Virus record (IMG/VR): IMGVR_UViG_3300009105_000010
Location: 1 to 43,570 of that record
DNA: 43,570 bases
Reading direction: 5' to 3' (one strand)
Origin: a virus
Shown one piece after another: positions 13,440 to 38,546 of the stretch. The position numbers and the translations under genes were made by a program. The notes under the pieces are model-generated. The model ran no database searches, was not told the DNA's origin, and was given only the letters and a program-made list of their open reading frames with translations. The stretch's first letter is position 1; each line of letters starts with the position of its first letter.

Positions 13440-14386
13440 TGAATTGGACAGACCTTGTTTACAGAACACTCGTTCCTTTTGCGGACGAACATAGGAACGA
13501 TCGTGGATTAACTGTTTCAGCAAAGAAGTACCTTGTTGAAGCTCAGGAAGATTTCGTAAGAGAAACTGGTTGCCTGGAACGTCAGAAATGGTTTTATATA
13601 AATGCTGAGACTGAGTACATAGATCTTCCTGTTGACTTCATAAAGATCACTCGTGCGGAGTTTAAAGGTTATCGTCTTGAATACATGGACGATTACCAGT
13701 ACGATTCCTTCCACTACCACAATACCACAGCTGAATACAGGTTTGCCAAGACGGAGCGAATTTTAATCCACGGTGGCAGGATTTATTTCGTACCTGGCAC
13801 GTCCTCAGCTGGTTGGCTTACTCTCTGGTATAAATACCATCCAAAGGTCCTTGATGATAGCGCAACTGCATATCGCAAACTGGACTATGATGGTCTGGTT
13901 ACTCATTTTGTACGTGGAGAGACTGTAACCGGAGAGGATAGTTCAGCTACAGGAGTCGTGGAATTTGACGATAATCACATGGCTACTGGCACACTCATTC
14001 TTTCAAGCGTCACAGGTGCTTTTGAGGATGATGAGGTGCTGACTGGCGATTCTTTAAGTCCGAACAGATCTACTTATGATGTAATCGATCAAAATTCCGA
14101 TCAGGTCATAGATTCAAATTCCAACGATATTGTTACAGGCGCAGGATTCGCATACGCCAATGGTATTGATAGAGGATTTTCGACAGCTGGTGATGATCCG
14201 GATATTGATGATGTATACAGGAAATACCTTGTCGATTACGCACGATCGTTGATCCTGGAAGATAAAGGATTGCCAAATAGAGCGAAACGATCCATGGATA
14301 CTTATTATGCCAATCGACAGAAAACAAGAGAGGATTTTAACGTCAGGATGGTCACCGGACCAGAAAAGATACTGGAAGAGTGGTAA
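13439..14386 (+). CDS. Second head-tail adaptor with inserted beta domain
   Basis: The 315-residue protein begins (MNWTDLVYRTLVPFADEHRNDRGLTVSAKKYLVEAQEDFVRETG) and ends (YRKYLVDYARSLILEDKG...RSMDTYYANRQKTREDFNVRM) like tail-tube-A or connector proteins: helices, a beta body, helices. Between about residues 160 and 235 is a segment of a different type (RGETVTGEDSSATGVVEFDD...GTLILSSVTGAFEDDEVLTGD), a repeated small beta domain seen in many phage tail proteins. It appears to be an insertion in the connector fold. The stop overlaps the nozzle gene start. Confidence 0.65.
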   Translation: MNWTDLVYRTLVPFADEHRNDRGLTVSAKKYLVEAQEDFVRETGCLERQKWFYINAETEYIDLPVDFIKITRAEFKGYRLEYMDDYQYDSFHYHNTTAEYRFAKTERILIHGGRIYFVPGTSSAGWLTLWYKYHPKVLDDSATAYRKLDYDGLVTHFVRGETVTGEDSSATGVVEFDDNHMATGTLILSSVTGAFEDDEVLTGDSLSPNRSTYDVIDQNSDQVIDSNSNDIVTGAGFAYANGIDRGFSTAGDDPDIDDVYRKYLVDYARSLILEDKGLPNRAKRSMDTYYANRQKTREDFNVRMVTGPEKILEEW

Positions 14387-17184
14387 TGAGCAGGTTAATC
14401 GAAATACCGTTGAATAAGACGCAGCTTATGACGCAGCCGGATCCGGAGGATATACCTCTCGGTGCTTGTGTAGAGATTGAGGACTATGAGTTAGATCAAT
14501 CTGGTAAGATCTATAAACGCAACAATGATACTCAGGTAAACACGATAGGCAGTAGAGAGTTTACACAGATAATGAAGTGGGTTAATGAAAACTTTACTGG
14601 TGGAGCCTTCGACGGAACAGCATGGATAACCTTTGATGCTACCAATGATACGATCGAATACTGGTCAGCTAATTGGAATGACGCACCGACAACCATAAAA
14701 GATCTGGTTTCAGGTGTATCAGATATTAAGATCCTTAACTTCCATGATAAGTTGCGCTTTGCGAATGGACTTACAAAGAGTCCTGGTGTTTTCCAGTATA
14801 TCGATAGGAATTACTTTTGGAACAGCGCCATAAAAACGGTTGGAGCCTTTGATTATGACGATTGCGCTCCGGACGACGACGATCAGAGCTATACGCTGGC
14901 GATAACGGATGAAACCGGATCCGGAGGATCGCTTGAGGACGCAAAAACCTATTACTACAAGTTTGTACCTATATTCGATGGTAACCAGGAAGCACCGATG
15001 CCAAAGAGGTATATATCGAACTCGCCAGGAGCCGACAGCTCAACCAATATAATAACAGCTGTATACTCAGGTGTCAACACCAGCTGGAATGAAAGGCTTA
15101 CAGGATATAACATATATCGAGCTGAGGCATGGAACGGTCCATATTACAGGATCCTGTCAATTTCTACATTGGACAACAATGACTCCAACCTGGAATATCA
15201 TACAGGAGCTTTGGTTGGTTATGGTCTTTATGTTCCGGATAAAAGCTGGTCCAGTCATGCTGGTGACGATGTTTTAATTAAAAGCATCATTTACGAGATT
15301 AGTTCAAATACTACTGACGTGGCTACACTTGCGACACAGATAGTAGATGGTTATGAGATATGGGGCGGTGAGTGGGCTATAATCACCGCTAACGTATTCG
15401 TGGCTAATTGTCAGAGTACGTTTGAAGTAGTAAATGTTGCCGATTGGACTTTAACTAATTGTAGTATGGCGATAGCTCTTGGTGATCCATATCAAGGAAA
15501 CAGAGCTGGCGAAATAACAATGGATGCAGCTGCGGACCAGTCTTCTGCGGAATCACCTACATTTGCTGTCTCTGCAAGCACGAATTATTACATTTCGGTA
15601 GCGGTTAAGAAAGATGCCAATGTTGATAATGTAAAAGTGTATGCGAAAGATGATGTTGGAGGCTACGCACCGATAGGCACATCAACTTCCGGAACGTATG
15701 AAGTGATCACCGGAACAGTTTTAACAGATGGTGCTGCCACAACTTTGCAGATAAAGATTGAGGTAAATGATGCTGGCGCTAACCAGGAGATAGGTTATGT
15801 TGACAATCTTTACGTTGGTGTAAGAGAGGATTTTGGTACGACAGATGGATACGCTGGCATAAACACAGTAATCGATGATGATTTCGTGCTTGATGCTGAG
15901 GACGGTAGACAGCATTACAGAGTCCTGGTAGGAACTAACACCAATGGAAACAATGATGCTTCCGCAGAGATCCGGAGAGTAACAAACAACGTAGGAAAAG
16001 CATTATTGGTTGACAGTGATTTTACAGGATCCTACATAGGAAGTAATCAAACTGTCTATCTATCAAAGAACTATTTATGGCAGCTATCAGATACGAACGA
16101 GGTCACGCTGACGATTTATGATACTGGTATCATCAATGGTAGAACACATCCTTACGGTGATGCGATTATTGAGGTCAATTACGAGTTTGGTCAATACATA
16201 GATGGACGTTTGTATGTACTAAGTACCAGGTTGGATCCGAATGGAACAGCTGAGGACCATAAAAACTTTTTATTGTTTAGTGAGCTGAATCAACCTGATG
16301 TGATACCGATCACAAATTACATAGAAATTCGAGATCTTCAAGGTGAGACTCCTAAAGGATTGGCAGATCAGCTAGGAGACCTGGTTATATTCATGGAGAG
16401 AGGTATTCAGAAACTAAGGATACCTGCAAATGATCCTACAACCTGGTCCAGAGTTGAAATAGCTCAAGACATAGGTTGTATAGCGTCTAATTCTATTATT
16501 TCGGTAGCTGGTACGATATTCTTCGCTGGTGAGGACTATATATATGCAGTTCCACAGGATTTTAGACCTGTACCAATCACAGAAAATTTGAAGGACACCT
16601 ATCAGGATCAATCGAATCTTAACAATTCCAGGACAATTTATGATCCATTAAAAAGGCGTGTTATATGCAGGTTTGGTGACGATGATGATAATATGTACCT
16701 ATTTGATTACGATAGCTTCTCAAAGACTGGTGAATTGAAATGGAATATGTTTACTGTTGCCACTGACACATTTGATCTATTATCGATAAATGAAGATCTG
16801 CAAATTTATTACTATAACAACCATGCAGCTTCAGGTAATGTTGCAGTCTACACACTTGCAACAGCGACAACAGGTAATAAGACTACCAAATATAAATCAG
16901 GATGGATACCGATAGCGGACCTTGACAGATCAAACATAATCAGACGATTAAACATGAGGTATTTATCGGCTGATATTATAACTGCTAAGATATTCGCAGA
17001 CGGAGATGATAGTTCAGAAATCAGAAGTATGTCATTTCCTGTAAATACTGGTGGGAGTGACCTTAGATACTATTCTCATAGACCTTCCAGGAGAGCGAAA
17101 TATATAATGATTCAGCTGACAACAAGTGGTACTTCAAATTACAACACAACAGTAGAAAGGATTGAAGTAGAACTCGATGACTGA
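14386..17184 (+). CDS. Tail nozzle protein with beta-propeller
   Basis: This 932-residue protein probably forms the tail nozzle below the adaptors, like T7 gp12 or P22 gp10. The repeated strand pattern in the second half (GRLYVLSTRLD, LGDLVIFMERGIQKLRI, GCIASNSIISVAGTIFFAGEDYIYAV, RRVICRFGDDDDNMYLFDYD) fits a beta-propeller. Residues about 348-483 look like an inserted carbohydrate-binding-type jelly roll (WTLTNCSMAI...STNYYISVAVKKD...IGYVDNLYVG). ATG 14386 is preferred to the GTG at 14380 because GGAAGAG lies six bases before it. The identification is by pattern and gene order. Confidence 0.65.
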   Translation: MSRLIEIPLNKTQLMTQPDPEDIPLGACVEIEDYELDQSGKIYKRNNDTQVNTIGSREFTQIMKWVNENFTGGAFDGTAWITFDATNDTIEYWSANWNDAPTTIKDLVSGVSDIKILNFHDKLRFANGLTKSPGVFQYIDRNYFWNSAIKTVGAFDYDDCAPDDDDQSYTLAITDETGSGGSLEDAKTYYYKFVPIFDGNQEAPMPKRYISNSPGADSSTNIITAVYSGVNTSWNERLTGYNIYRAEAWNGPYYRILSISTLDNNDSNLEYHTGALVGYGLYVPDKSWSSHAGDDVLIKSIIYEISSNTTDVATLATQIVDGYEIWGGEWAIITANVFVANCQSTFEVVNVADWTLTNCSMAIALGDPYQGNRAGEITMDAAADQSSAESPTFAVSASTNYYISVAVKKDANVDNVKVYAKDDVGGYAPIGTSTSGTYEVITGTVLTDGAATTLQIKIEVNDAGANQEIGYVDNLYVGVREDFGTTDGYAGINTVIDDDFVLDAEDGRQHYRVLVGTNTNGNNDASAEIRRVTNNVGKALLVDSDFTGSYIGSNQTVYLSKNYLWQLSDTNEVTLTIYDTGIINGRTHPYGDAIIEVNYEFGQYIDGRLYVLSTRLDPNGTAEDHKNFLLFSELNQPDVIPITNYIEIRDLQGETPKGLADQLGDLVIFMERGIQKLRIPANDPTTWSRVEIAQDIGCIASNSIISVAGTIFFAGEDYIYAVPQDFRPVPITENLKDTYQDQSNLNNSRTIYDPLKRRVICRFGDDDDNMYLFDYDSFSKTGELKWNMFTVATDTFDLLSINEDLQIYYYNNHAASGNVAVYTLATATTGNKTTKYKSGWIPIADLDRSNIIRRLNMRYLSADIITAKIFADGDDSSEIRSMSFPVNTGGSDLRYYSHRPSRRAKYIMIQLTTSGTSNYNTTVERIEVELDD

Positions 17185-17447: not shown

Positions 17448-18149
17448 ATGCCATTACCTGCAATCGTAGCTACGATAGGATCCTGGATTGCTAATAATCC
17501 TATGGCAACTGCCTATATTGGCAAAACGCTACTTGGTTTAGGTAGAGGAGGTGGAAGAGGTGGACCTAAACGCAAGCGATCCGGACTTGAAAAAGGTTAT
17601 TTATCACATCTGCGAAAAATAAGCCAGGAAGGAGTATTTACACCTGGTGTCCAGCGCAATATCCTTTCCGGAGTCTCAACCAGGTTAAGTGAAGTATCTG
17701 GTAGGAGCAAGGCTGATATTCAAGGTAGAATGGCGAGTCAAGGACTTGAAAGAAGCATTATAGGTACACAACAAACCAGGAAGCTCGATCGAGATGTATT
17801 GGAGAGAGTAGCCGAGGTTGCACGAGATCTCTCTGTACGCAATAGAATGAGCCAGGTTGGAGCGCAAGAACGATTAGGCGAACTAGGATTGGAAAGAACC
17901 AGAGAAGGATACGAGGACAGGTTGAGAAGGTATATGACAAGGCAATCCGGATTAGATCTCGCCATGCAAGGTGGTGTCGATTTTGCCAGCGCACTACAGA
18001 ATAAATTTGCTTCTTATGGTGATGGTGCGATAATTGAAGATGAAACTGGACAGAGGTTCATAATTGTTGGTGGAATACCAATACCAATTCCAGAGCAAAG
18101 TCTACCACAAGCAGGACCAGGAACACAATATTTACCAGGACCAACATAA
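17448..18149 (+). CDS. Ejection-type internal virion protein 1
   Basis: This 233-residue protein has a hydrophobic, glycine-rich N-terminus (IVATIGSWIANNPMATAYIGKTLLGLGRGGGRGG). Arg/Glu/Leu-rich helices with repeated GRMASQGLERS and RLGELGLERTREGYEDRL patterns follow. This composition is typical of small phage DNA-ejection proteins that insert into the host envelope. The C-terminus carries IIEDE-T-GQRFII followed by GGIPIPIPEQ (residues about 195-217), a motif that reappears in the secreted prophage protein at 34992-35363. AACGGAGG precedes the ATG, and the stop overlaps the next gene (TAATG). The function is inferred from position and composition. Confidence 0.6.
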   Translation: MPLPAIVATIGSWIANNPMATAYIGKTLLGLGRGGGRGGPKRKRSGLEKGYLSHLRKISQEGVFTPGVQRNILSGVSTRLSEVSGRSKADIQGRMASQGLERSIIGTQQTRKLDRDVLERVAEVARDLSVRNRMSQVGAQERLGELGLERTREGYEDRLRRYMTRQSGLDLAMQGGVDFASALQNKFASYGDGAIIEDETGQRFIIVGGIPIPIPEQSLPQAGPGTQYLPGPT

Positions 18150-24900: not shown

Positions 24901-27900
24901 GAGGAAAGACTCGTAAGCGCAGATCAGTTGTTTAAGAAAACTAAGAACCTACTGTTTATTTATAGTCCACACGATTACTTCAATATAAGTACAGCTGGTG
25001 AGGAATACGCAGCGATCGTACAGGAAATAGTCGTAGGAAAAAGACGTGAAGGTATTAATCCAGGTATACCAAGCAGGTTCCGGATCCGGTTTGTAGTAAA
25101 TGATCCGATCAGGAAGATCACTGTACCATTAAGTAAACTTATGACAGGTGGTGTTGATGCAAGAGAGAGTTACTCATGGGGCGTAGAGAACGACTTTAAA
25201 AGAGCGCAAGATCTTGAATTTAGAACCAGGAGACAGGTTATTACAGGCAATATAGTTCGTGGCATGGATGTAGCTGGAAGAGGTCGAATAGTAGCTTATA
25301 CAACTGATGCTGGTCCAACAAAGATCGGTATACTACTTCCTCGTGATTGGCAAGAATCAGATCTTAAAAAGGATCCTCGTCTCGAATTGATTAGTAAAGA
25401 TGCTGCCAAGTATTTTATGGACCATAATCAGTATGTAACCATATCAACAAAAGGTGGATTCAAGATCAATAACAGCGCTGGTTACTATACACTTACAGCG
25501 CCAGGTGGCAAGCAGCGTGGAGGTAGATATTTTTTAAGTGATGAAATCATTAATGAGGTTGGTGAGTTTGTTAAGATCGGAAACAGGATGGAGGTTAAGT
25601 CCTACGATAGCAATAAGGTCCATAACGTGATAGATATAATATATGATAACTTTAGAGAGCGCTTATCAGGACATAAACTGAATACAGAAAACATTAAGCT
25701 GGCTAATGAACATGAACCGGATACTGACCATGGTGTTGAGTTAGGCTTTCTTGGAATGACACCTGAGAACTTCAAGAGCTTTGCCAAGCTATTTCAGACG
25801 AATCGATCGCACAATGCTTATTTAAGAATGATCTCGTCAGATAATCCTAAATATGAAGATTTGTTTATCCAAGACAGAGCATCAATGGGCAATCCTGTTT
25901 CCTGGATCCTGAACTTGAGAGATCGCTATAAGACCTCATTGGTACTTACACCACCGGATGTAAGATTGAAGAAACACCAGCTTCCGGAAGATAGTCCTAT
26001 ATCATTAAATGAGATCAATGACGAGTTTCGAAAGATCCGTGATGTTCAGAAGTTTGCCAGGAAAGAATCTGTAAGACTTATGGAGAAGATCTTGAAGCCA
26101 CTTAGAGATAGTAGAGATCTCGCCATTTTTGAGAGGATAGTAATAACACGAGATCTCATAGCTACTGTGAAGGAAGGTTTAGTGGTACCTAACGAATTGA
26201 CACTAGGTGAATTGGAGAAAGAACTAAACACGCTTGAAGATTTCGCGCCTGATCGTGTGATTGATGCAGCTGACAACCATAGCGTTTTGATGAAGAGACA
26301 TGGTATGCAACTTGTCAAGCGTGGTAAGATCGAAACGCCAAGAGAAGATTATTTTCCTCACTTTGTAATGGAATACTATCGAGACTTCAACAAGGTATCG
26401 TCTACCGGACCAAGGTTGAGAGATCCGTATAGACCTTACACCAGGAGGCGTGAAGGATCCGACAAACCTATCAAGACTGATTATGTTAATACCATGCTGG
26501 AACATTTGACCAAGTACCTGGCTGACAATATGATCGACGATTTCAACGCCAAGATGCTGAACAGCCTTGACATATATCCGAGGTTGATCCAGGAAGTGAT
26601 GGACGAATTGGACGTAGGAAAAAGGTTGGCAACGAAGAAAGTTAAAGTTCCACCTGGTTATGCAAAATACCAGCCGGTACCTGGTAACTATTTCTACACA
26701 GGAAACCTGGTTGGCGACAAGATCCTGAACACAAGTACAGAAGATTTCTTTGATGATCTTGCAGATATGATGAATACTGTGGATCCTGAAAAAATACCAC
26801 CAAATGTACGTGACCTGGTTAAAGCAAGAGAAGGACTTGCGGTTGGACAGAAAAGAAAGACATATATCATACCTTCGACACTGGCAAAACATTTTACACA
26901 GTACAGGAAATATGAGCAGCTTGGACCATTTTTACGTTTAATGCAGGATCTCGTTATGGCTTGGAAGTGGAATGTTCTTGTACTTAATCCGAAGTACCAG
27001 ATCAAGAATATAATGGGCGATAACCTGAACCTGTTTTTTGATGATACAATGGCTTTTATGAGACATCCACAGGCTATGGGTATGCTATTAAAAAGATTTC
27101 TTGTGAAGTTTGGTGCTAAAGGAAGATGGTTAGAAGAGAAGGAGTTGTCAGATAAGATCCAGAGACTTGTCAGAAACAACAATCTTAAAGCAAAGACATA
27201 CATTGAATTGGCTGAGGAATTAGCTGTCATAGACTCTGGTTTTGTCGGTGTAGAGATTGCGGAGATCCTACGCTTACCTGAGTTTAAACGATTCAGTAAA
27301 AACTATTTTGAGAAAGGTAAGGTTGCGCTTAAAAGTATACCACTGGCTTTAAGAGAAATTAGTGTTGTCCGTGAGAATTGGGCGAGACTGGCAAAGTTTC
27401 TTACTGACCTTAAAAGGATTGAAAGAGGCAAGCGCAGGCTTACGACAGATCAGATGGTCCAGAATGTTATCAGGAGAGCGTTATCTCTTGAACCTATCAT
27501 ACCAAGTGTAGTGAGAACCAGGACGACAACTCTTGAAGGATTGGACCAGATCTCGTCAGCTGCCAAAGCCAGTCGTCGTGCTTTGTTGGATTATGGTGAT
27601 TTTTCGAGGATTGAGGATAAATACGTCAGAAGATTCCTGTATCCATTTTGGGCTTGGGCTAAAGGTAATGTGATTATCCAGGCAAACAAACTATGGAGAT
27701 CTCCACTTAACTATTTCTTCAAACTTGGTTCGATTTATTATCTGATGTACCTATGGAATAACAGCGATGAAGAGAAGAAAAGATTTGAAGGAAGACTGCC
27801 TGATTGGGCTAAGTATATGCCACATTTGAACATAAAGATTGCGGGAAAAATGAGAGCTTTGTTAATTGATGCGCCATGGTCAGACGCAGCTTCCAGGTTA

Positions 27901-28317
27901 GGTCTCTCTTCATTAGCTAAATTCTTATCATTGAATCTAAAAATGGATCCGGTCCAGGCTTTAAATGAATCACTTGAAGATATTTACCGTGAATGGGGCA
28001 GCGGACTTAATCCTTTCATTCTTGAGTTAATTGAACAGAGGACAGGAATTGATGTCTTCACAGGATACAGATGGAAACCATACAAGCGTAAAAGCGAATC
28101 TGAGGAGGCTTATGCTCGCAGGCTAATGGAAGCCAGGAAGGAGAAAGTTTTTGATCTCATAAGAGCGTATGCAGCCATACAGCGCATAAAGAGAGCAAAG
28201 GAGCGAGGACGTGGAGCTATTGAGGAGTTTTTGCCGATAAGATCTTTTCCGGAGAACAGATTGAATCCAGCGTTCAGAAAACCTAAGAGAGAAACCAGGA
28301 CAGTGAGGTTCCACTAA
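18964..28317 (+). CDS. Giant DarB-like polyvalent protein (methyltransferase + SNF2/strawberry-notch helicase)
   Basis: This single 3117-residue protein takes more than a fifth of the genome. Residues about 146-281 hold two glycine-rich hydrophobic stretches that could enter membranes. A DNA adenine methyltransferase-type domain follows, with EPTAGTGML (about 769-777) and NPPF (about 829). A Pro/Glu/Arg-rich linker (about 960-1110) leads to a superfamily 2 helicase: Walker A GDQTGMGKG (1188-1196), DESH (1319-1322), SATW (about 1366) and QIQGRINRVGQ (about 1727). This order matches phage P1 DarB and the strawberry-notch type. The C-terminal third is helical, with RFLYPFWAWAKGNVIIQ (about 2890) resembling a large-polyvalent-protein-associated domain. 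DarB is packaged in P1 heads and injected to protect DNA from type I restriction. The same role, combined with ejection, is inferred here. Confidence 0.85.
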   Translation: MPTSYLDGLFGTEEKTKPQGHEGQFLDALFNYQDNVVEELEPKQAVPIEYIEPEPGTEQIVQPADRSIVDRILRKRRVARRMKQEQEIMTYKDLVNKFGEERGKELYIATRGREPWMEAVYSGATGSEPTIVLNELMSERSQKIAHFAGFLLGATPVSFLAGGPAAKLALKLGEKVVSSTKLLSIMTRAAGGAATLGGKTIMDTAVQIKEGVPVTAWDATKNILASAGYGTAFGAVGGAISSPFARIPAEMATGYAAVKLQGGDNEDAMFLALTFGALGMLNTKNLRPIEREFAFRRMRTQFEEFARKNYEIPKEKIGDFAAKAENMLRAETADKVTIQRIDKLINSMKSDWRKILSEELPPPKPEPARKPGRGFVTKPAPEEPVTPKPEPEVKPTELPELINPEEQLTHKKGWTEFIRARVHPETYKPSFERVSGKPVTVEGYEDVEFFAYPADEGKGYYVIEKSTGLSGGGGKTIKEATESIIKSIDNIGREKFDKIISEKPKVPTIEPKREIPTVKHDLVRREEKPAPPAERLKKRLAEVKEEPELPTEGDFFRMVTDAILTHKKFLNRGSETNLVLEAGMEEGIIDGKQAKQVLDKIRDLEHQGKLGLVGEELMHAFQQAGKPSEPEITPALEEPKEIPEEEAVLGLPSMNKIIKNEVYDDLKKGKQVRFSTLKALAEARGVPIREAMVAAESAVVELATEIVSKGKDPRAIYSTLQSLYKKQPTLPKTSTVMKLQQYSTPPPIAYAMAHSINATEESTKAITMLEPTAGTGMLTIGIPRNVHSYLVELDEKRADALYEVFGQGLEKDFLETKTDPKYYDLVITNPPFGPLKPAQKIHGYTISKLDHAIVMKAMDQLKDDGRAAIILGANLTPGEIRRPDRIFMNWLHSNYNVVDNFEVSGKLYAGQGAKWPIRIIVVNGRQKSDNVAPVEVERVNSFEDLWNRSEEIRNVIAQGREPLDTARKRKQYAVSRAGPERKAEGLGKLPEPTQREGEEVVERVEPGAPARGVVGGERERLRGVEPGGPGRAAVPSPREREAEPIVERGAEVLPEKAKPAKTVEFESEEQAPQVAVEKATEARGGRAGSRGLRARDDVKQVETEHQVSYRPVSSGSTLGAMIPKHLAGPTKAAIEQIESKTGSIDEYVREKLRYKNLKDLKEVLSAEQVEGVAVLIHQLESGNAAVIGDQTGMGKGRIGASMIRYALINGKIPVYVTANADLFSSVYRDLVDIRNPDISPFTMGQRDRTPIVDINDNVLFQAIPRPDQVDFMNRNKSGELKLGDYDVIMMTYSQINKVGNIQQQFIENVSRKGALFILDESHKASGQSTTGAFFRGGGMVKKVEGEWQKLEFPGVINPPSQVVYMSATWVKRPDSIPVYHRTDLGKATDDMDALVEVMDLGGTPIIQVVSSQLAKNGQYMRREQSFKGISMPIKVDTTHEVEQAKVVDRVTDILQQIVQFDYEKMDHIIKPMDKEAKAYGREVTGSKNVASGVKSALFSSRFHNVIGQLMLSTKVENAITEAIDAVKNKNQKPFIVVEFTNESLLKDIVARDELVIGDGIDERFNNILHRALESTLKVTEINPYGDSTSRILTIQELGDFARVYLDIQKQIDRLDIPLRGSPIDYMISRLKAEGIKVGEITGRTIIVDYNYDKGTGKWNGIYRRRTAQEKVKTRIANAYNQGKLDAVIANISAAEGFDAHSSSKFKDQRQRVQILVQPPREINAFMQIQGRINRVGQVNLPQYTFLWTALPTERRPAAVLARKLESLNANVAADAESAMSMKEVVNMFNKYGDEVAAEWLIENRSLMKLFNLEKDITEWSSPPGKVSAEPGLMLKFTGKLTLLPVQEQSQVLDELEERYIQYIDYLDETGQNDLRVEALDWSAETTDTKVIDKGTDQSNSFTSAINLEKISIKESRKPPTFQEAAVMVSDVVEVEKKADYVKSIVDTINKEYEEWKKEQLAEIQQIKDERSRLERKSMLEERLVSADQLFKKTKNLLFIYSPHDYFNISTAGEEYAAIVQEIVVGKRREGINPGIPSRFRIRFVVNDPIRKITVPLSKLMTGGVDARESYSWGVENDFKRAQDLEFRTRRQVITGNIVRGMDVAGRGRIVAYTTDAGPTKIGILLPRDWQESDLKKDPRLELISKDAAKYFMDHNQYVTISTKGGFKINNSAGYYTLTAPGGKQRGGRYFLSDEIINEVGEFVKIGNRMEVKSYDSNKVHNVIDIIYDNFRERLSGHKLNTENIKLANEHEPDTDHGVELGFLGMTPENFKSFAKLFQTNRSHNAYLRMISSDNPKYEDLFIQDRASMGNPVSWILNLRDRYKTSLVLTPPDVRLKKHQLPEDSPISLNEINDEFRKIRDVQKFARKESVRLMEKILKPLRDSRDLAIFERIVITRDLIATVKEGLVVPNELTLGELEKELNTLEDFAPDRVIDAADNHSVLMKRHGMQLVKRGKIETPREDYFPHFVMEYYRDFNKVSSTGPRLRDPYRPYTRRREGSDKPIKTDYVNTMLEHLTKYLADNMIDDFNAKMLNSLDIYPRLIQEVMDELDVGKRLATKKVKVPPGYAKYQPVPGNYFYTGNLVGDKILNTSTEDFFDDLADMMNTVDPEKIPPNVRDLVKAREGLAVGQKRKTYIIPSTLAKHFTQYRKYEQLGPFLRLMQDLVMAWKWNVLVLNPKYQIKNIMGDNLNLFFDDTMAFMRHPQAMGMLLKRFLVKFGAKGRWLEEKELSDKIQRLVRNNNLKAKTYIELAEELAVIDSGFVGVEIAEILRLPEFKRFSKNYFEKGKVALKSIPLALREISVVRENWARLAKFLTDLKRIERGKRRLTTDQMVQNVIRRALSLEPIIPSVVRTRTTTLEGLDQISSAAKASRRALLDYGDFSRIEDKYVRRFLYPFWAWAKGNVIIQANKLWRSPLNYFFKLGSIYYLMYLWNNSDEEKKRFEGRLPDWAKYMPHLNIKIAGKMRALLIDAPWSDAASRLGLSSLAKFLSLNLKMDPVQALNESLEDIYREWGSGLNPFILELIEQRTGIDVFTGYRWKPYKRKSESEEAYARRLMEARKEKVFDLIRAYAAIQRIKRAKERGRGAIEEFLPIRSFPENRLNPAFRKPKRETRTVRFH

Positions 28318-28782: not shown

Positions 28783-30321
28783 ATGAGTGGCTATCACCGA
28801 CCTTCAGTTGGCGCAACCGTAGAAGAGGTTGAGGTCAACTATGAATCTCTATTCACTACAAATAATTTAGACGCGAACGCTCGCCAGGTTAAAGGCGCAA
28901 GGAGTGACGGTCTTTCTGCATTATACGTTGGTACCTCCATTGTTGAGGTCAAGCCTGCGTCTGATGGTGTTGCGGTATTCAATGTAAAGCAAGCTGATGG
29001 TACGTCTGTATTAGCGGTAGACACTTCCACACCTAAAGTAATTATTGCTTCCAATTTAGAGTTTACAGGTGCGCAAACTATCACCACGTCCACTGGACAA
29101 TTAGATATTCAGACTGGTGCTGGAAATGGTGACATAGTTCTTACGCCTCATGGTTCAGGTGACATTATTCTTGATGGTCATTGGAATTTTAACGCTAATG
29201 CTCTGACCAGTCTTACTGATAACAACACCACGATTACAGCCTATGCAGGAAAGAACATTACCATTGAATCAGTCACTTTTGATGGTGGCGCTGTTGCTGC
29301 TATTACTACACTTGATATGACAGGCGATCTTACGATAGGAAGCACAACGAGAATAACATTAGGTGGTGGAGCGAATGACGATGGAATTGTCTTTGCAAGT
29401 TTAGGCACAGCGACCAAGGCTATTGATTTCAGTTCAGATGGTTTAGCTGGTGCAACCGATTATCATATCTACATAGGAGCTGCTGATTATTGGGCTGCCG
29501 ATGGAAGTTTCTCAGCTACAGTCATAGCGATCGGTGGCGTTACGATCACAGGTGATATAACCACCACAGCCACAGCTATTGATTGGGACCTGATCGATAA
29601 CAACGCTTCTGCGCTAAGTTTTGATGCAGCTGGTAAGGCTGGAATCCTTGAGATCGTTACGACTAATGCAGGTGAAGGCGTTAATATGTCCGGATTCCTT
29701 ACTGTTACTGGTACGGTAACAGGAGGAACGCTTACCGATGGTACTGCATCAATCACAGGTGGCGCGATCACCGGAGTAGGTACACTTACCGCAACTGGAA
29801 ACCTGGACATTGGCGCTCACGATTTTAGAGCGCTTTCCTTTACTTCTGATGTGGCTATTGGTACAGCTCCTTTGGTGGTTACTTCAACCACGGTTGTAGC
29901 GAATCTTAACGTTGACCAGGTTGATGGTTATGACCTGGACCAGGACGTAACAACTTCTGGTACACCTACCTTCGCAGCTTTAACCGTTTCCGGACTTACG
30001 ACTCTTAGCGGTGGACTTATAACCAAGCGAACAGCAAGCGCAACTGACTACACAGCTCTAGCCACTGACCAGATCATAGCGATTACCGACACCACAGTAG
30101 CGAGAGCTATAACTTTGAATACTGCGCTTCTGACAGCTGGTAGAACATATATAATCGTAGATGAATCAGGTGCAGCCGGCACGAATAACATTACGATTCA
30201 AACACAAGGCGCTGAAACGATCAATGGCGCTGCGACTCTTGTGATTAGTGTTAATTATGGAGCCATATTTATATACACTGATGGTTCCAATTGGTTTGCG
30301 ATTTACGAAGGAATAGCATAA
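28783..30321 (+). CDS. Tail fibre / receptor-contact structural protein 1
   Basis: This 512-residue protein is almost entirely beta strands with Gly, Thr, Ala and Asp repeats (TLTATGNLDIGAH, SITGGAITGVGTLTATG, VTGTVTGGTLTDG), typical of trimeric phage fibre shafts. The C-terminus (ARAITLNTALLTAGRTYIIVDESGAAGTNNITIQT...IFIYTDGSNWFAIY) is a compact cap widely seen at fibre ends. GGCGGAGG precedes the ATG. It shares the TPxGSG-type repeat with the next gene, suggesting the two derive from a common fibre module. The receptor is unknown. Confidence 0.75.
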   Translation: MSGYHRPSVGATVEEVEVNYESLFTTNNLDANARQVKGARSDGLSALYVGTSIVEVKPASDGVAVFNVKQADGTSVLAVDTSTPKVIIASNLEFTGAQTITTSTGQLDIQTGAGNGDIVLTPHGSGDIILDGHWNFNANALTSLTDNNTTITAYAGKNITIESVTFDGGAVAAITTLDMTGDLTIGSTTRITLGGGANDDGIVFASLGTATKAIDFSSDGLAGATDYHIYIGAADYWAADGSFSATVIAIGGVTITGDITTTATAIDWDLIDNNASALSFDAAGKAGILEIVTTNAGEGVNMSGFLTVTGTVTGGTLTDGTASITGGAITGVGTLTATGNLDIGAHDFRALSFTSDVAIGTAPLVVTSTTVVANLNVDQVDGYDLDQDVTTSGTPTFAALTVSGLTTLSGGLITKRTASATDYTALATDQIIAITDTTVARAITLNTALLTAGRTYIIVDESGAAGTNNITIQTQGAETINGAATLVISVNYGAIFIYTDGSNWFAIYEGIA

Positions 30322-30336
30322 TAGGAGTTTAAAATA

Positions 30337-32121
30337 ATGGCTAGTAAACAACACAAACTTTTAGCTGGTGTGAATGATCTTCACATTCCTTACATCACAA
30401 ATGCTGGTAGTCCTGACTCATCTGTTACAGCTGCGCAGAACCACTTTTGTTTAGATACCACTAACACCATAGTATACCGGAATACAGACGGTGCGCAAGC
30501 CTGGAGTGTATTCGCTTATGCTATGAACGCTACTCTTGGTACGATCGAAGCCAGTAAAGGTGTGGCTCTTGATTCCAACAAGAAGGTGGATGAATGGAAC
30601 GTTGACAACCTGAAAATGGACGGTAATACTCTATCGTCTACTGATGCGAATGGAGCTGTCAATATTACTCCGAATGGTTCAGGTGCGGTTGTTGTCAGTC
30701 AAAAACTGACAGTGAGTGATCTCACAGCTGGTCGAGTACCTTTTGCTTCAACTGCTGGATTGCTGGTTGATGATGCGGATTTCACATTTGCCACTGATAC
30801 ATTAACAGTCACCAAGATAGGAGCGTTTGAAGCTGTCGGTGCGATCAATTTCGGTAATCAGAACATGACCAATGTAGACATTGACTCCGGAGATATTACA
30901 GGTGTGACCATAAGCGGTGCGCTTACCTGGTCAGCTGCTCAAAACCTGAACTCTCAGGCTCTTACTAATGTCAACATTGATTCCGGAACAGTTGACGGAG
31001 TAACGATCGGAGGAGCTTCCGCTGGTGCGATCACTGGTACAACTATAACAGCAACATCTCTTGTGATCGGTGCTAATACTCTCACAACAACCGAATGGGC
31101 GAATCTTGACGGTCAGGATCAAGCGGTAGCGAGTGGAAGCTCACCATCTTTTGTTGATGTTACTTTATCCAATGATTTATTACTCGCCACAGGTAGTATA
31201 ATCAATTTCAATTCAGGTGCCGAAACGATAACTCATTCGGCAAATACTATTACAGTCGGTGGAGTGACAACTTGGGACATGGGAGCTGTAACTACATTAG
31301 ATTTTGGTGGAGCAACTTCAATTACTGCTTCCGGTGCTAATCTTATTACGATTACTGGCACAACTGCTGGTGTGTTTTTGAGGAATTTAGTGTTTGTTGG
31401 TCAAATTGGTGTTCCAGCTTCTAATGCAAACATGACCGATGGAATTACAATAGGACAACTCGGTGGAAGCGGTGAGGCATTAACTTTCAAATCAAATCTC
31501 ACAACACATGGAGTAACCACTCAGACAGAAACTAATACTTGGGGAAAAGTGAGGATTTTTAACACTGATGATGGTGGGATCATGATGGCTGGATATTGTG
31601 ATGCTGGAAATACTGGTGTTTTAATTCAAGGAACTGCTCCTACTGATGATACAGGCAAAGCAACAACTGACAATGGTAATATAATACTAAATGCAACAAA
31701 GACAAATGGCACAGGAATACAGGCTGTTGGAGCAGATGGTAATCTTGTTACGATTGAAAATAATCATACAGCCCGTTTCATATTCGATGCCGAAGGATCT
31801 GGTCATGCAGACGTTGAATGGGTTGCATTTGATGAATATAATGATGTTCAGGTTCTTTCTGATATTGAGGCTTTGATGCTTCCTGATATGTTTGGTCAGA
31901 CCGTTGAATACAATCTTGTAGCGCTTGAAAAACTTGGTATCGTTGGTAAAGGCTCTTTCGGAACCAATCCTAATGGTAAAAATCACGCTATGATTAACTG
32001 GACTAAAATGAGTATGCTGCACCATGGAGCGATTCAACAGGTTTATGCTGAGCTCCAAGAGTTAAAGGAAGAAAACAGTCAGCTCAAATCTCAATTAACG
32101 ACTTTAATAGGAGAGGCTTAA
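30337..32121 (+). CDS. Tail fibre protein 2 with C-terminal coiled coil
   Basis: This 594-residue protein has the same beta-repeat character as the gene before it (NITPNGSGAVVVSQKL, NVDIDSGDITGVTISGAL, NVNIDSGTVDGVTIGGA). A distinct domain of about 100 residues follows. The end is EYNLVALEKLGIV...AMINWTKMSMLHHGAIQQVYAELQELKEENSQLKSQL, a helix and coiled coil. Such C-terminal segments in fibres often act as intramolecular trimerisation chaperones. Whether this one is cleaved cannot be seen. TAGGAG precedes the ATG. Confidence 0.75.
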   Translation: MASKQHKLLAGVNDLHIPYITNAGSPDSSVTAAQNHFCLDTTNTIVYRNTDGAQAWSVFAYAMNATLGTIEASKGVALDSNKKVDEWNVDNLKMDGNTLSSTDANGAVNITPNGSGAVVVSQKLTVSDLTAGRVPFASTAGLLVDDADFTFATDTLTVTKIGAFEAVGAINFGNQNMTNVDIDSGDITGVTISGALTWSAAQNLNSQALTNVNIDSGTVDGVTIGGASAGAITGTTITATSLVIGANTLTTTEWANLDGQDQAVASGSSPSFVDVTLSNDLLLATGSIINFNSGAETITHSANTITVGGVTTWDMGAVTTLDFGGATSITASGANLITITGTTAGVFLRNLVFVGQIGVPASNANMTDGITIGQLGGSGEALTFKSNLTTHGVTTQTETNTWGKVRIFNTDDGGIMMAGYCDAGNTGVLIQGTAPTDDTGKATTDNGNIILNATKTNGTGIQAVGADGNLVTIENNHTARFIFDAEGSGHADVEWVAFDEYNDVQVLSDIEALMLPDMFGQTVEYNLVALEKLGIVGKGSFGTNPNGKNHAMINWTKMSMLHHGAIQQVYAELQELKEENSQLKSQLTTLIGEA

Positions 32122-34020: not shown

Positions 34021-34992
34021 TTACAGTTGATTGATGTAATAACGGAGGAAGTCTGTGTTTGGATGTGTATAGTCTGCGGTGACCTTGCTTGTGGATATGT
34101 GACCTAACAACGCTTTACGGTCCTCATAGGCAAGACCTAGATCTCTCAGGTGAGTGTTGAAGCTATGACGAAGGCTGTGCAGATCTGCTTTCATACCAAA
34201 GTTTTCTCTCAAGATTTTTTGAAATCGTTTCCTGGATTCATCTCTTCTGTGGACCGTTGGCATTAGATCTACCAGCTTATCTTTATAAGGTAGTAATTCA
34301 TTATGTAGCGGAATCATAACTGGTTCCGCTGTTTTTGTTTGTGCCAGCTCGATACAATCACCTTTAAGGTTTTCAGGTTTTAACGTGCCTGCATCACCAA
34401 CACGAAGTCCAGTATAGTAAAGTAAGGACCAGAATATGCGATCGTCCTCACGCCAGGCAAGATCTATTGTCTTTTTAACTATATCGTGAGGAATTGCCTG
34501 TCTTGGTCTTTTTGTTTTTTTCGCTGGAAGTATTACATTTTTACAAGGATTGCTATGAATGTATTTATTCTGAATAGCATATTCGAACATAGCTTTTACG
34601 ATCGAGACTTCATCTCTGACTGTTTTGTTTGCTTTGTCATCCTTTAATCTTTTGCTGATATAATTATTTATGTCCTTAACGGTTACTCTACCGATTAAGT
34701 GATTGCTGTAAACATAAATAAATTGTTTCAAACCAGCGCTTATACGTTTGGACCAGGACTCCGATTTCACTGTTTGGATCAGCTCGATATACTCCTGGTA
34801 TAGAGCTTCGCAGGTCATACTTTTAGTGGCAATTCCATGTCTTTGCAGGATCCTCTCTTCGTCCCACTTAGCCTGGATTAGCTGAGCGATACGTTTATTA
34901 GGTGTGCCAGTTGACTTCTGGATCCGGTGAGGACCACCACCATCAGTATATTGCCAGTGAGGAGATCCTGTACGCTTATAGATGCGTGACAT
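34021..34992 (-). CDS. int: Tyrosine-type integrase
   Basis: This 323-residue site-specific recombinase would insert and excise the phage at the tRNA end seen next to it. The catalytic residues are visible: R197 (TGLRVGD), K220 (QTK), H272 and R275 (LHSLRHS), H298 (LGHIS) and Y308 (DYTH). The N-terminus has an arm-binding-type segment, followed by a SAM-like core-binding domain (about 60-145). Its start overlaps the stop of the secreted protein gene (TAATG), so it is translated from the lysogeny operon. Its 3' end faces the attP region. Confidence 0.95.
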   Translation of the reverse strand: MSRIYKRTGSPHWQYTDGGGPHRIQKSTGTPNKRIAQLIQAKWDEERILQRHGIATKSMTCEALYQEYIELIQTVKSESWSKRISAGLKQFIYVYSNHLIGRVTVKDINNYISKRLKDDKANKTVRDEVSIVKAMFEYAIQNKYIHSNPCKNVILPAKKTKRPRQAIPHDIVKKTIDLAWREDDRIFWSLLYYTGLRVGDAGTLKPENLKGDCIELAQTKTAEPVMIPLHNELLPYKDKLVDLMPTVHRRDESRKRFQKILRENFGMKADLHSLRHSFNTHLRDLGLAYEDRKALLGHISTSKVTADYTHPNTDFLRYYINQL

Positions 34993-35363
34993 TATTGCTT
35001 AGATATAGGAAAAGGTCTACCTTTGAAAATAATAAATCTCTGACCAACTTCATCTTCAATGATTGAACCACTTGGATATTTATATAAACTATCTTTTTCC
35101 AATACATTCCATTCTATTTTGTTCTTCCAATAGTACGATTCATCGTCAGAGTATTCAATAAATAGTTCATACATATCACCTGTTGCATTATCAAACAAAA
35201 CATCCATAACCTGAAAGTCAAAAATTGTAGTGTCAAGATCTTTTGTATCATGATAAAATATTGTTGGAATAGTAACCTGTTTGATTTCATATCTTCCTAC
35301 TTCCTGAGCAAAAATCAGAGAAAGGAATCCTATAATATATAATAGCTTTTTCATTCTATACAT
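34992..35363 (-). CDS. Secreted protein of the lysogeny operon, sharing a motif with a virion protein
   Basis: This 123-residue protein begins with a clear Sec signal peptide (MKKLLYIIGFLSLIFAQ), with cleavage likely after FAQ. The mature protein is small, acidic and aromatic. Its last 25 residues read SGSIIEDE-V-GQRFII then FKGRPFPISKQ. The ejection-type protein at 17448-18149 ends with DGAIIEDE-T-GQRFII then VGGIPIPIPEQ: 17 of 26 positions match. DNA identity is only partial, so the similarity is not a recent copy. The gene lies between repressor and integrase, overlapping both, so it should be made in lysogens. A role in superinfection exclusion or other lysogenic conversion is inferred. 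No known family is recognised. Confidence 0.75.
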   Translation of the reverse strand: MYRMKKLLYIIGFLSLIFAQEVGRYEIKQVTIPTIFYHDTKDLDTTIFDFQVMDVLFDNATGDMYELFIEYSDDESYYWKNKIEWNVLEKDSLYKYPSGSIIEDEVGQRFIIFKGRPFPISKQ

Positions 35364-35671
35364 TTCTTCCGCAATCGCTTAACTTCCTCAACAACCGCCA
35401 CCAGGTCGTTCGCCATAACCGCTTGAACTAACCTCTCATTTGTCTCCTTCAATTCTTTAATATATTCAGCTGTCTTATCCTCTTCACCTTTAAGCAGCCA
35501 ATCCAGGCTTACATTAAATACCTCGTGAATACGAATAATTGCATCGATACCAGGTCTGGATCTACCTTTCAACCAATCAGCTACATTTCCAGAAGAAGCA
35601 TCAATCCGTCGGGCAAATTCAGCTGGATTGATTTTTTCATCATCAATTATTTTTTGTATTCGCTCGTACAT
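35351..35671 (-). CDS. CI/Cro-type repressor
   Basis: This 106-residue protein has an N-terminal helix-turn-helix of the Xre/CI type (INPAEFARRIDASSGNVADWLKGRSRPGIDAIIRIHEVFNVSLDWLLKG) and a helical tail, without a LexA-like protease domain. It probably holds the phage in lysogeny by binding the operator at 35691-35710. An upstream TTG (35692) is in frame but has no ribosome binding site. ATG 35671 lies just after a TATATC -10-like box, so the transcript may be leaderless. The stop lies within the next gene. Short repressors without the cleavage domain need another route to induction. Confidence 0.8.
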   Translation of the reverse strand: MYERIQKIIDDEKINPAEFARRIDASSGNVADWLKGRSRPGIDAIIRIHEVFNVSLDWLLKGEEDKTAEYIKELKETNERLVQAVMANDLVAVVEEVKRLRKKCIE

Positions 35672-35685
35672 AAGTGATATAGCTC

Positions 35686-35715
35686 TTGACAAGCTCGTAT
35701 TTACGAACTTATATT
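35686..35715 (+). promoter_or_regulatory. Rightward early promoter with embedded operator
   Basis: TTGACA (35686-35691) and TATATT (35710-35715) are 18 bases apart, a near-consensus sigma-70-type promoter facing the early genes. The spacer is filled by a 20-bp dyad, AAGCTCGTA-TT-TACGAACTT (35691-35710), with one mismatch in nine pairs. A further half-site GCTCGTA lies at 35662. The divergent repressor gene starts next to it, so this is the lysis-lysogeny switch region. A repressor bound here would cover both promoter elements. Confidence 0.8.
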
Positions 35716-35816: not shown

Positions 35817-36014
35817 ATGTCTGAGAACCATGAAATATTGACAATTAAAGAAGTGGCCAAGTATCTGCGCTTTGAGGACGTAAAGGCAGTTTATGACCTG
35901 ATTCATCTTGGCAAGTTGAAGGCAACAAAACTTAACAACCGGACTTACCGTGTCCGAAGAGTTGACCTTGATAGGTTTCTTGAGGAAAACGAAGTCCAGG
36001 TACCTCACTTATGA
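35817..36014 (+). CDS. Excisionase-family helix-turn-helix protein
   Basis: This is a 65-residue DNA-binding protein of the MerR-like helix-turn-helix type used by excisionases (ILTIKEVAKYLRFEDVKAVYDLIHLGKLKATKLNNRTYRVRRVDLDRFLEE). In temperate phages such a protein bends DNA at att sites and directs the integrase towards excision. It may also regulate early genes. It is the first full gene after the early promoter and has a strong AAGGAGG site. Whether it is Xis or a Cro-like regulator cannot be told from the sequence. Confidence 0.7.
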   Translation: MSENHEILTIKEVAKYLRFEDVKAVYDLIHLGKLKATKLNNRTYRVRRVDLDRFLEENEVQVPHL

Positions 36015-36572: not shown

Positions 36573-36691
36573 TAATTGAGGAGAGAATAAAGCCGAGGTG
36601 GTGGGGTATTAGTAATATCCATTGGAGCGTTATCGTAAAGTGGGTTTGGAGGCGTTATTTCTCTCTTGGAATGAAAGGAGAATCATTATGA
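36569..36691 (+). CDS. 40-residue tryptophan-rich ORF (GTG start)
   Basis: A short basic ORF (IKPRWWGISNIHWSVIVKWVWRRYF) fills the gap between the acidic protein and the ATPase, overlapping both (GTGA and ATGA). It has five tryptophans. No strong ribosome binding site precedes the GTG, so it would depend on coupling. Confidence 0.4.
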   Translation: MIIEERIKPRWWGISNIHWSVIVKWVWRRYFSLGMKGESL

Positions 36692-38004
36692 GTGGATACA
36701 AAATTTATCGCTTTATTGCGGAGAAAGTTAATGGTCTGAAAGTGATCCAGCTTTCTCCGGAAGGAAAGAGTTTGCAGGTAACCGGAAAGGTCGGATCCGG
36801 CAAGACCTCTATTATCGATACGCTGTTACAGACATTTACTGGTGGACTGGTTCTAAAAGAAGGTGAGGATTTAGGATCCTCAGCTGTTGAGATCTCTGAT
36901 GGAGAAAAGCAATTCAGGATCCAGCGCAAGGTACGCCAGGATAAGAAGCCTACTCTGGAAGTGTTCACCGGAGACGAGTTTGATATGAGGATAGCACAGC
37001 CTTCTGATTTCCTGAAAACATTGGTAGGAAAGGACGTGGCGATCAGTCCTACCATGTTCAACAATGTCAAAGGTGGTGGCAAACAGCGAAAGGAGATCTT
37101 ATTCGAGGCTTTAGGTATTGACACAACTACTGAGGACGGTGAGATCAACAAGCTGAAACAGGAACGGTCTTTACTCAAGCATGATATGAATAAATTGCGT
37201 GTGGACCTGGAAGAAACACCGATCGATTCTCACCTGCCGAAAGAGCTGGTGTCCGCTACTGAGTTGATGGAAGAATTGAATAAGGCTAACCAGCATAACC
37301 AGGACCTACAAAGACGTTTAGATGCTACTGGCAGAGCTACTCAAGATTACGAGAAGGACGTAAAAGATCTACAAATGGTGCTTGAAGAGATCGAAGCCAT
37401 GGAACAGAAATTACAGGATATGAAAGACAGGTATAAACTCAGATCCGGACAGATTGCAGAAATCGGCAGACAGATTACAGAGGAAGAGGAAAAACTCCAT
37501 GAGATACAACCGATCGACACTACTGAGCTTAAAGAGAGGATCCAGAAAGCTGATGAAGAGAATGAACTGATCCGGAAGAACATTGAGCAAAAGAAGAAGA
37601 AGGTTGATCTGGAAACGAAACAGGATGAATACCACGATTTTGGTCAGGAGATCAAAACGATTGAGACTTACAAGAAGGCTTCCATCGATGAATTAATGCC
37701 GATACCTGGTCTGTCGATCGGAGAGGACGACGTTTACTACGCCAAGAATGGATCCACACCTGTACCTGGATCCATGTGGTCCACTGGTGAGAGCATTTAC
37801 CTTGGTTGTGTGATACGAGTCGCGCAAGGTGGCAATTCCAAGCTAAAGACAGTATTTGTGGATGATGTATCGCTCCTGGACGTGGAGACGCTTGACCGCT
37901 TGCGAGAGATACTTGGTGACTACCAGGTGTTTGAAGTACACAACAACATAGTTGGCGAACCGCTTAACGTGGTCACTATTTCAGAAGGTGAAATAGTAGA
38001 ATGA
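36688..38004 (+). CDS. SbcC/Rad50-like ATPase
   Basis: This 438-residue ABC-type ATPase has the split layout of SMC/Rad50 proteins. Walker A GKVGSGKTS is near residue 35, a long charged coiled coil runs about 160-330, then the signature-like WSTGESIYLG and Walker B TVFVDDVSLLD with a D-loop. The coil is much shorter than in SbcC. The start at ATG 36688 follows GAAAGGAG; an in-frame TTG 66 bases upstream is ignored. No SbcD-type nuclease lies beside it. The YqaJ exonuclease and RecT downstream suggest a joint role in DNA end processing. Its last residues (GEPLNVVTISEGE) recur at the end of the next ORF. Confidence 0.8.
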   Translation: MSGYKIYRFIAEKVNGLKVIQLSPEGKSLQVTGKVGSGKTSIIDTLLQTFTGGLVLKEGEDLGSSAVEISDGEKQFRIQRKVRQDKKPTLEVFTGDEFDMRIAQPSDFLKTLVGKDVAISPTMFNNVKGGGKQRKEILFEALGIDTTTEDGEINKLKQERSLLKHDMNKLRVDLEETPIDSHLPKELVSATELMEELNKANQHNQDLQRRLDATGRATQDYEKDVKDLQMVLEEIEAMEQKLQDMKDRYKLRSGQIAEIGRQITEEEEKLHEIQPIDTTELKERIQKADEENELIRKNIEQKKKKVDLETKQDEYHDFGQEIKTIETYKKASIDELMPIPGLSIGEDDVYYAKNGSTPVPGSMWSTGESIYLGCVIRVAQGGNSKLKTVFVDDVSLLDVETLDRLREILGDYQVFEVHNNIVGEPLNVVTISEGEIVE

Positions 38005-38546
38005 AAGTGATTCCTCTTAAAGGCAAACATGGTATAGGAAAGTTCGCTCTCGTTGACGACGAAGACTACTATGGTCTTATTAGATGGAAGTGGCAGGTCA
38101 ATTATTATGGTTATGTATTTAGACACGATTATGATCCAATAACTCAAAAGGTTAGATGTGTCTACTTGGCTCGTTTCCTAATGAATGCGCCAAAAGGATC
38201 GTTGGTTCATCATATTGACCACGATCCTCTTGATAATAGAAGAGAAAACTTGCAGATCTGTGACAAAGTACAGAACGCTCAAAGTAGTGTTGTTAGAGAA
38301 GGACGAAAGTATAAAGGAGTGAGTTTTCATAAATCAGCTCAGGCTTGGGAGGCATATATACAAGTAGATAAGAAGAAGATTTACTTAGGTGTTTTTACTA
38401 ATGAAATAGAGGCTGCCAAAGAATATGATCGTGCTGCTACTGAATATTTTGGAGAGTTCGCCTTACTGAACTTTCCAGGTGAACCTTTAAATGTTATAAC
38501 TATCGAAGAAGGAGAGGTTAAGGATGGAAAAGAAAACAACAAGTAG
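38001..38546 (+). CDS. HNH-AP2 homing endonuclease with ATPase-derived tail
   Basis: This 181-residue protein has an HNH nuclease core (VHHIDHDPLDNRRENL, H70-H74, N79) and an AP2 DNA-binding domain (about 103-158, YKGVSFHKSAQAWEAYI...YLGVFTNEIEAAKEYDRAA...LLNFP). That combination marks a phage homing endonuclease. The tail, GEPLNVITIEEGEV and on to DGKENNK, does not belong to the AP2 domain. It repeats the C-terminus of the ATPase just upstream. The gene starts in the ATPase stop (ATGA) and ends inside the next gene. The endonuclease gene seems to have been inserted at the ATPase 3' end, leaving the old end fused to it. Confidence 0.85.
   Translation: MKVIPLKGKHGIGKFALVDDEDYYGLIRWKWQVNYYGYVFRHDYDPITQKVRCVYLARFLMNAPKGSLVHHIDHDPLDNRRENLQICDKVQNAQSSVVREGRKYKGVSFHKSAQAWEAYIQVDKKKIYLGVFTNEIEAAKEYDRAATEYFGEFALLNFPGEPLNVITIEEGEVKDGKENNK

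What the first reader, a model, noticed from the sequence alone, without database searches (positions are those of the whole stretch)
34992..35363. Secreted lysogeny-operon protein ends in a motif shared with a virion ejection-type protein
The signal-peptide protein between repressor and integrase ends in IIEDE-V-GQRFII plus a PFPI tail. The ejection-type protein at 17448-18149 ends in IIEDE-T-GQRFII plus IPIPI. Over 26 positions 17 match, in two genes 17 kb apart on opposite strands with different expression phases. A prophage protein exported to the envelope that carries a piece of the incoming particle could block assembly of the ejection channel of a related phage. That would be superinfection exclusion by virion-motif mimicry, which I do not know as a described mechanism. 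Alternatively, both motifs bind the same host envelope partner.
Basis: partly seen in the sequence, partly recalled or inferred. Interest (0 to 1): 0.85.

Follow-up and report, generated by a model that had tools for sequence, protein, structure and literature searches.

The report
Exported prophage protein echoing phage injection protein
A temperate virus of bacteria carries, between its two lysogeny genes, a small exported protein that ends in the same peptide of about 26 residues as one of the virus's own presumed DNA-injection proteins; the match is real and looks maintained by selection, but whether it blocks rival viruses is untested.

Summary
The exported 123-aa protein (34992-35363, minus strand) and the ejection-type protein (17448-18149) share an ungapped 28-residue stretch, 18 identical, p about 1e-9. 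Synonymous sites are saturated, so this is not a recent DNA copy. The exported gene sits in a tight repressor > exported protein > integrase operon (ATGA and TAATG overlaps) and is the most AT-rich gene of the phage (29% against 42% GC). First, the motif is not a standard part of the ejection protein: about ten homologues in related phages lack it, and here it lies in a 45-codon appendage of atypical composition. Second, a loose scan of 2.9 million viral contigs found one further coding example, at the C-terminus of a protein in the presumed ejection cluster of an unrelated podovirus, so the motif may be a portable C-terminal hairpin. No relative has the exported protein, so co-variation could not be tested. 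Best reading: a lysogen-expressed envelope protein, probably superinfection exclusion as with Ltp, SieA or filamentous pIII, whose hairpin competes for a partner shared with the ejection protein. The mechanism is inferred.

The parts
34992..35363 (-). AT-rich gene for a small exported protein (123 aa from 35363, 120 aa from the better start at 35354)
   Evidence: 28.8% GC, lowest of the 46 genes tested (median 41.7%); no Pfam, NCBIfam or PADLOC match above noise
35304..35354 (-). signal-peptide-like N-terminus MKKLLYIIGFLSLIFAQ
   Evidence: direct reading; no signal-peptide predictor was available
34995..35078 (-). C-terminal shared motif YPSGSIIEDEVGQRFIIFKGRPFPISKQ
   Evidence: predicted as two strands, low confidence
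17448..18014 (+). core of the ejection-type protein, conserved in relatives
18015..18098 (+). shared motif YGDGAIIEDETGQRFIIVGGIPIPIPEQ in the ejection-type protein
   Evidence: absent from all complete homologues found
18015..18149 (+). C-terminal appendage (motif plus tail), third-position GC 5/45 against 62/189 in the core
   Evidence: Fisher p 0.003; as low or lower than 99.6% of 45-codon windows of late genes
35351..35692 (-). HTH repressor; its TGA overlaps the ATG of the exported-protein gene (ATGA at 35351-35354)
34021..34992 (-). tyrosine integrase; its ATG overlaps the TAA of the exported-protein gene (TAATG)
35817..36014 (+). divergent HTH_17 gene, the other side of the lysogeny control region
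   Evidence: a similar divergent gene lies beside the integrase in relatives
14380..17184 (+). nozzle-like tail protein upstream of the ejection-type gene (label from gene order in an SU10-like cluster)
   Evidence: gene order compared with PMC9509320

Best explanation
The protein is a lysogen-expressed, exported accessory ('moron') protein of a temperate SU10-like podovirus. It is translationally coupled between the repressor and the integrase, so it would be made while the prophage is silent and would sit in the envelope. Its most likely job is superinfection exclusion at the DNA-entry step. Its C-terminal hairpin resembles the C-terminal appendage of the phage's own ejection-type protein, so it probably occupies the partner (a host envelope protein, or another ejection or tail protein) that this appendage must engage when a like phage delivers its ejection proteins. 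Shown: the shared motif, its protein-level conservation, the gene overlaps, the AT-rich composition. Inferred: export, expression in the lysogen, the ejection role of the 17448 protein, the hairpin fold, and the competition mechanism.
For: Motif homology p about 1e-9 and E 1.3e-6 in the record. Conserved residues with saturated synonymous sites: dN 0.28, dS 4.4; 9 identical codons among 18 identical residues against 7.5 expected at random. ATGA and TAATG overlaps in the operon. In Streptococcus phage TP-J34 the exclusion lipoprotein Ltp has a like place (integrase, ltp, metalloproteinase, repressor, then divergent cro), is made in the prophage state and stops DNA injection by acting on the tape measure protein (PMC3952083). 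P22 SieA acts on the ejection proteins of short-tailed phages (PMC10883804). A related integrase operon (L101) carries two other exported proteins in the same slot. A second, unrelated podovirus carries the motif at the C-terminus of a protein in its presumed ejection cluster.
Against: No homologue of the exported protein in viral contigs, phages or plasmids. The ejection-type homologues of related phages lack the motif. Ejection function is inferred from gene order; no profile or solved structure supports it. Structure predictions are low confidence and a fold search is uninformative. No expression or infection data; the host is unknown.
Confidence: 0.33

Rival explanations
1. The motif is a portable C-terminal binding hairpin that takes both proteins to the same envelope site; the exported protein is a lysogenic-conversion factor with another role (host fitness, surface change) and does not exclude phages.
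For: The motif is terminal in both proteins, and both copies are compositionally atypical; it recurs once in an unrelated presumed ejection cluster. L101 shows unrelated exported proteins in the same slot.
Against: The motif was not seen in any other exported protein: the only other plausible coding match was in a presumed ejection cluster, and 299 Pseudomonadota genomes gave only chance-level partial matches. The host group itself could not be searched.
Confidence: 0.3
2. The two C-termini are short beta-hairpins from a wider, weakly conserved pool, acquired separately; the likeness has no functional link between the two genes.
For: Relatives do without the motif. The exported gene is AT-rich and foreign in composition. 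An RfaH chain shows a similar short stretch, QRFISFGGEPLPVPE (E 0.008), which shows that such stretches can arise elsewhere.
Against: 64% identity over 28 ungapped residues is far above chance, and among 980 kb of related loci no ORF other than copies of these two comes near the motif profile, best E 0.76.
Confidence: 0.25
3. The exported protein binds the appendage of the incoming ejection protein directly (pairing of like hairpins) rather than competing for a third partner.
For: Like hairpins could pair; P22 SieA escape mutations map to two ejection proteins, so exclusion proteins can act on them (PMC10883804).
Against: Nothing in the sequence shows self-association; the structure models are poor.
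Confidence: 0.12

Closest known systems
Ltp of Streptococcus thermophilus phage TP-J34 (superinfection exclusion lipoprotein; PMC3952083)
   Same: Small exported protein in the lysogeny module between integrase and repressor, same strand, made in the prophage state; blocks DNA injection by acting on a phage entry protein.
   Different: Lipid-anchored, with a repeat domain, acts on the tape measure protein; no shared virion motif mentioned in the passages read; here no Cys for a lipid anchor and no detected homology.
P22 SieA (PMC10883804)
   Same: Prophage envelope protein of a short-tailed phage; genetics point to the ejection proteins gp16 and gp20 as its targets.
   Different: Inner-membrane protein; no sequence shared with the ejection proteins mentioned in the passages read.
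Filamentous phage pIII superinfection immunity (PMC7070036, citing Boeke 1982 and Riechmann 1997)
   Same: A virion protein resident in the host envelope saturates the host partner TolA that incoming phage needs: the competition principle proposed here.
   Different: The whole coat protein does it, not a dedicated lysogeny gene that carries only a short motif.
SU10 (Kuravirus) ejection cluster (PMC9509320)
   Same: Portal, capsid and adaptor profile matches; in SU10 the ejection proteins gp20-24 are numbered after the nozzle gp17 and needle gp18.
   Different: The window phage carries an integrase and repressor, and its ejection-type protein has no detectable profile match.

Membership tests
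Ltp-type superinfection exclusion proteins | gene in the lysogeny module between integrase and repressor | tested here: met
   compare the gene table of PMC3952083
Ltp-type superinfection exclusion proteins | lipoprotein signal and lipid anchor | tested here: not met
   no Cys in the protein; plain signal-peptide-like start
Ltp-type superinfection exclusion proteins | sequence homology to known exclusion proteins | tested here: not met
   no Pfam, NCBIfam or PADLOC match and only a weak PHROG match of unknown function
Superinfection exclusion proteins in general | blocks infection of a lysogen before or at DNA entry | not testable with these tools
   needs infection assays
pIII-type immunity (virion part in the envelope saturates a host partner) | the envelope protein carries the part of the virion protein that binds the host partner | tested here: inconclusive
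   shared 28-residue stretch shown; whether it binds a host partner is unknown
SU10-like podovirus (for the phage) | SU10-type portal, major capsid protein and adaptor | tested here: met
   SU10_portal E 5e-13 and SU10_adaptor E 3e-11 (over cut-off); SU10_MCP E 4.5e-4 (below cut-off)

The most novel reading that the evidence does not exclude
A temperate phage encodes, inside its repressor-integrase operon, a dedicated periplasmic decoy that carries the C-terminal hairpin of an ejection protein and so blocks channel formation by phages that use the same hairpin: superinfection exclusion by a borrowed virion peptide.
Probability: 0.2. Interest if true: 0.8.

Novelty: new variant of a known kind. 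Interest (0 to 1): 0.5.

Why it matters
If the motif is the working part, it would link a lysogeny gene to a specific short peptide of the injection machinery of short-tailed phages, whose binding partners in the envelope are poorly known. It would give a sequence-only way to predict which phages a prophage excludes, and a handle for finding the partner.

Tried and rejected
Searches for homologues of the exported protein in viral contigs, phage and plasmid records: none. Motif-only scan with close patterns: itself only. Capsid-based scan of genomes: one distant Geminicoccus locus, so the host group stayed out of reach. Recent duplication between the two genes: rejected, synonymous sites are saturated. 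Copying of the phage's own virion gene: unlikely, because the exported gene is the most AT-rich of the genome. Motif as a standard part of the ejection protein: rejected. Motif as a general bacterial element: no sign in 299 Pseudomonadota genomes, but that is probably not the host group. Weak PHROG 12467 match (E 0.007): no genome searched held the family, so nothing learned. Structure prediction of both proteins: below useful confidence; fold search meaningless. Short-peptide tblastn of the motif in phage records: nothing or chance-level matches; default settings are weak for queries this short. Promoter scan of the operon: no more sites than in shuffled sequence. No tRNA gene that would mark an attachment site.

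Full report
Setting. The window is a 43.6-kb record of a viral-contig collection. Portal, capsid and adaptor profiles are of the SU10 type. A nozzle-like gene (14380-17184) is followed by a small gene, the ejection-type gene (17448-18149), another small gene and a 3117-aa protein with helicase domains. On the minus strand lie repressor (35351-35692), exported protein (34992-35363) and integrase (34021-34992), with a divergent HTH_17 gene on the other side.

Observation. The exported protein and the ejection-type protein share one ungapped 28-residue block, 18 identical, score 89 against a maximum of 49 in 2000 shuffles, p about 1e-9. Within the record it is the only other match of the exported protein. 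A near-identical contig (L003, 99.99% over 16.7 kb) confirms the ejection-type gene; the exported gene is seen in this record only.

How old is the likeness? DNA identity is 55/84. Of 18 identical residues 9 use the same codon; 7.5 are expected if synonymous choice were random. dN is 0.28 and dS about 4.4, which is saturated. So the peptide has been kept while the DNA drifted, or the two genes acquired it separately. A recent copy is excluded.

Where did the pieces come from? The exported gene has 28.8% GC, the lowest of 46 genes (median 41.7%), while its operon neighbours are ordinary. The motif and tail of the ejection-type gene (45 codons) have third-position GC 5/45 against 62/189 in the core, Fisher p 0.003; only 0.4% of equal windows in the late genes are as low. 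Both copies thus look like late additions, perhaps from AT-rich sources (inference).

Is the motif part of the ejection protein? Relatives were found through the capsid protein, the integrase and the ejection core itself. About ten homologues that reach their stop codon (L015, L017, L024, L025, L031, L032, L038, G025, G027, L140, L142, L143; some near-duplicates) have other C-termini and no motif. L009, from one of the phages nearest by capsid protein, is cut before the end. The motif is therefore optional.

Does the motif occur elsewhere? A profile of the two copies finds nothing else in 980 kb of related loci, and only partial matches at the chance rate in 299 Pseudomonadota genomes. A looser DNA pattern over all viral contigs gave six stretches on five contigs: the phage's own copy, three contigs with matches in implausible reading frames, and L156, whose 341-aa protein ends EGRVVVNKATGERFVIRNGKPVPIKEGV. 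That gene lies between a nozzle-like gene and the fibre-like genes of an unrelated podovirus, among presumed ejection genes; the labels there are mine, from gene order. This phage has no second copy. As the pattern chose the residues, only the location is independent evidence; by a rough estimate of mine a chance match would fall there in about one case in a hundred.

Lysogeny operons of relatives. Four SU10-like relatives have integrase and a divergent HTH gene with no gene between that resembles the exported protein. Several integrase relatives have repressor and integrase adjoining. L101 has a repressor, an exported protein, a DUF4468 lipoprotein, and then the integrase. So the slot takes exported proteins, but not this one. 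An all-against-all comparison inside ten such phages found no other exported-virion motif pair.

Mechanism. Position and the signal-peptide-like start point to a lysogen-expressed envelope protein. Ltp has a like place and stops DNA injection by acting on the tape measure protein (PMC3952083). SieA acts on ejection proteins (PMC10883804). pIII, present in the envelope, saturates TolA (PMC7070036). Combined with the shared hairpin, competition for a partner of the ejection protein is the simplest account. Each step after the sequence facts is inference.

Verdict. A real, statistically strong, unusual motif pair; the mechanism is open and its principle partly precedented. New variant of a known kind.

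Noticed in passing
36622-38004 and 38001-38546: An AAA_23/SMC-like protein and the adjoining HNH_3-AP2 endonuclease share their last ~16 residues (GEPLNVVTISEGEIVE / GEPLNVITIEEGEVKD; 12 of 17, E 0.002; DNA similar over 38 bases with many synonymous changes). It looks like a homing endonuclease gene that carries a recoded copy of the 3' end of the gene it follows.
   Followed up: partly
18964-28317: A 3117-aa protein with strawberry-notch-type helicase domains and a weak methyltransferase match inside the virion gene cluster, as in large polyvalent phage proteins.
   Followed up: no
L101 506-2973 (L118 in the fuller record): Related integrase operon with two exported proteins, one a DUF4468 lipoprotein, between repressor and integrase; the same record has three further signal-peptide-like proteins in another cluster, L119 7446-11715.
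   Followed up: partly
L106 2294-3001 and L107 2231-2992: Repressors with nearly the same HTH part but unrelated C-terminal domains, directly before the integrase: domain exchange in the repressor.
   Followed up: no
28783-30321 and 30337-32121: Two adjacent fibre-like proteins are diverged paralogues over about 500 residues (E 5e-10).
   Followed up: no
34995-35078: The motif profile matches QRFISFGGEPLPVPE of an RfaH chain in the PDB set (9ik0, E 0.008), probably convergent.
   Followed up: no
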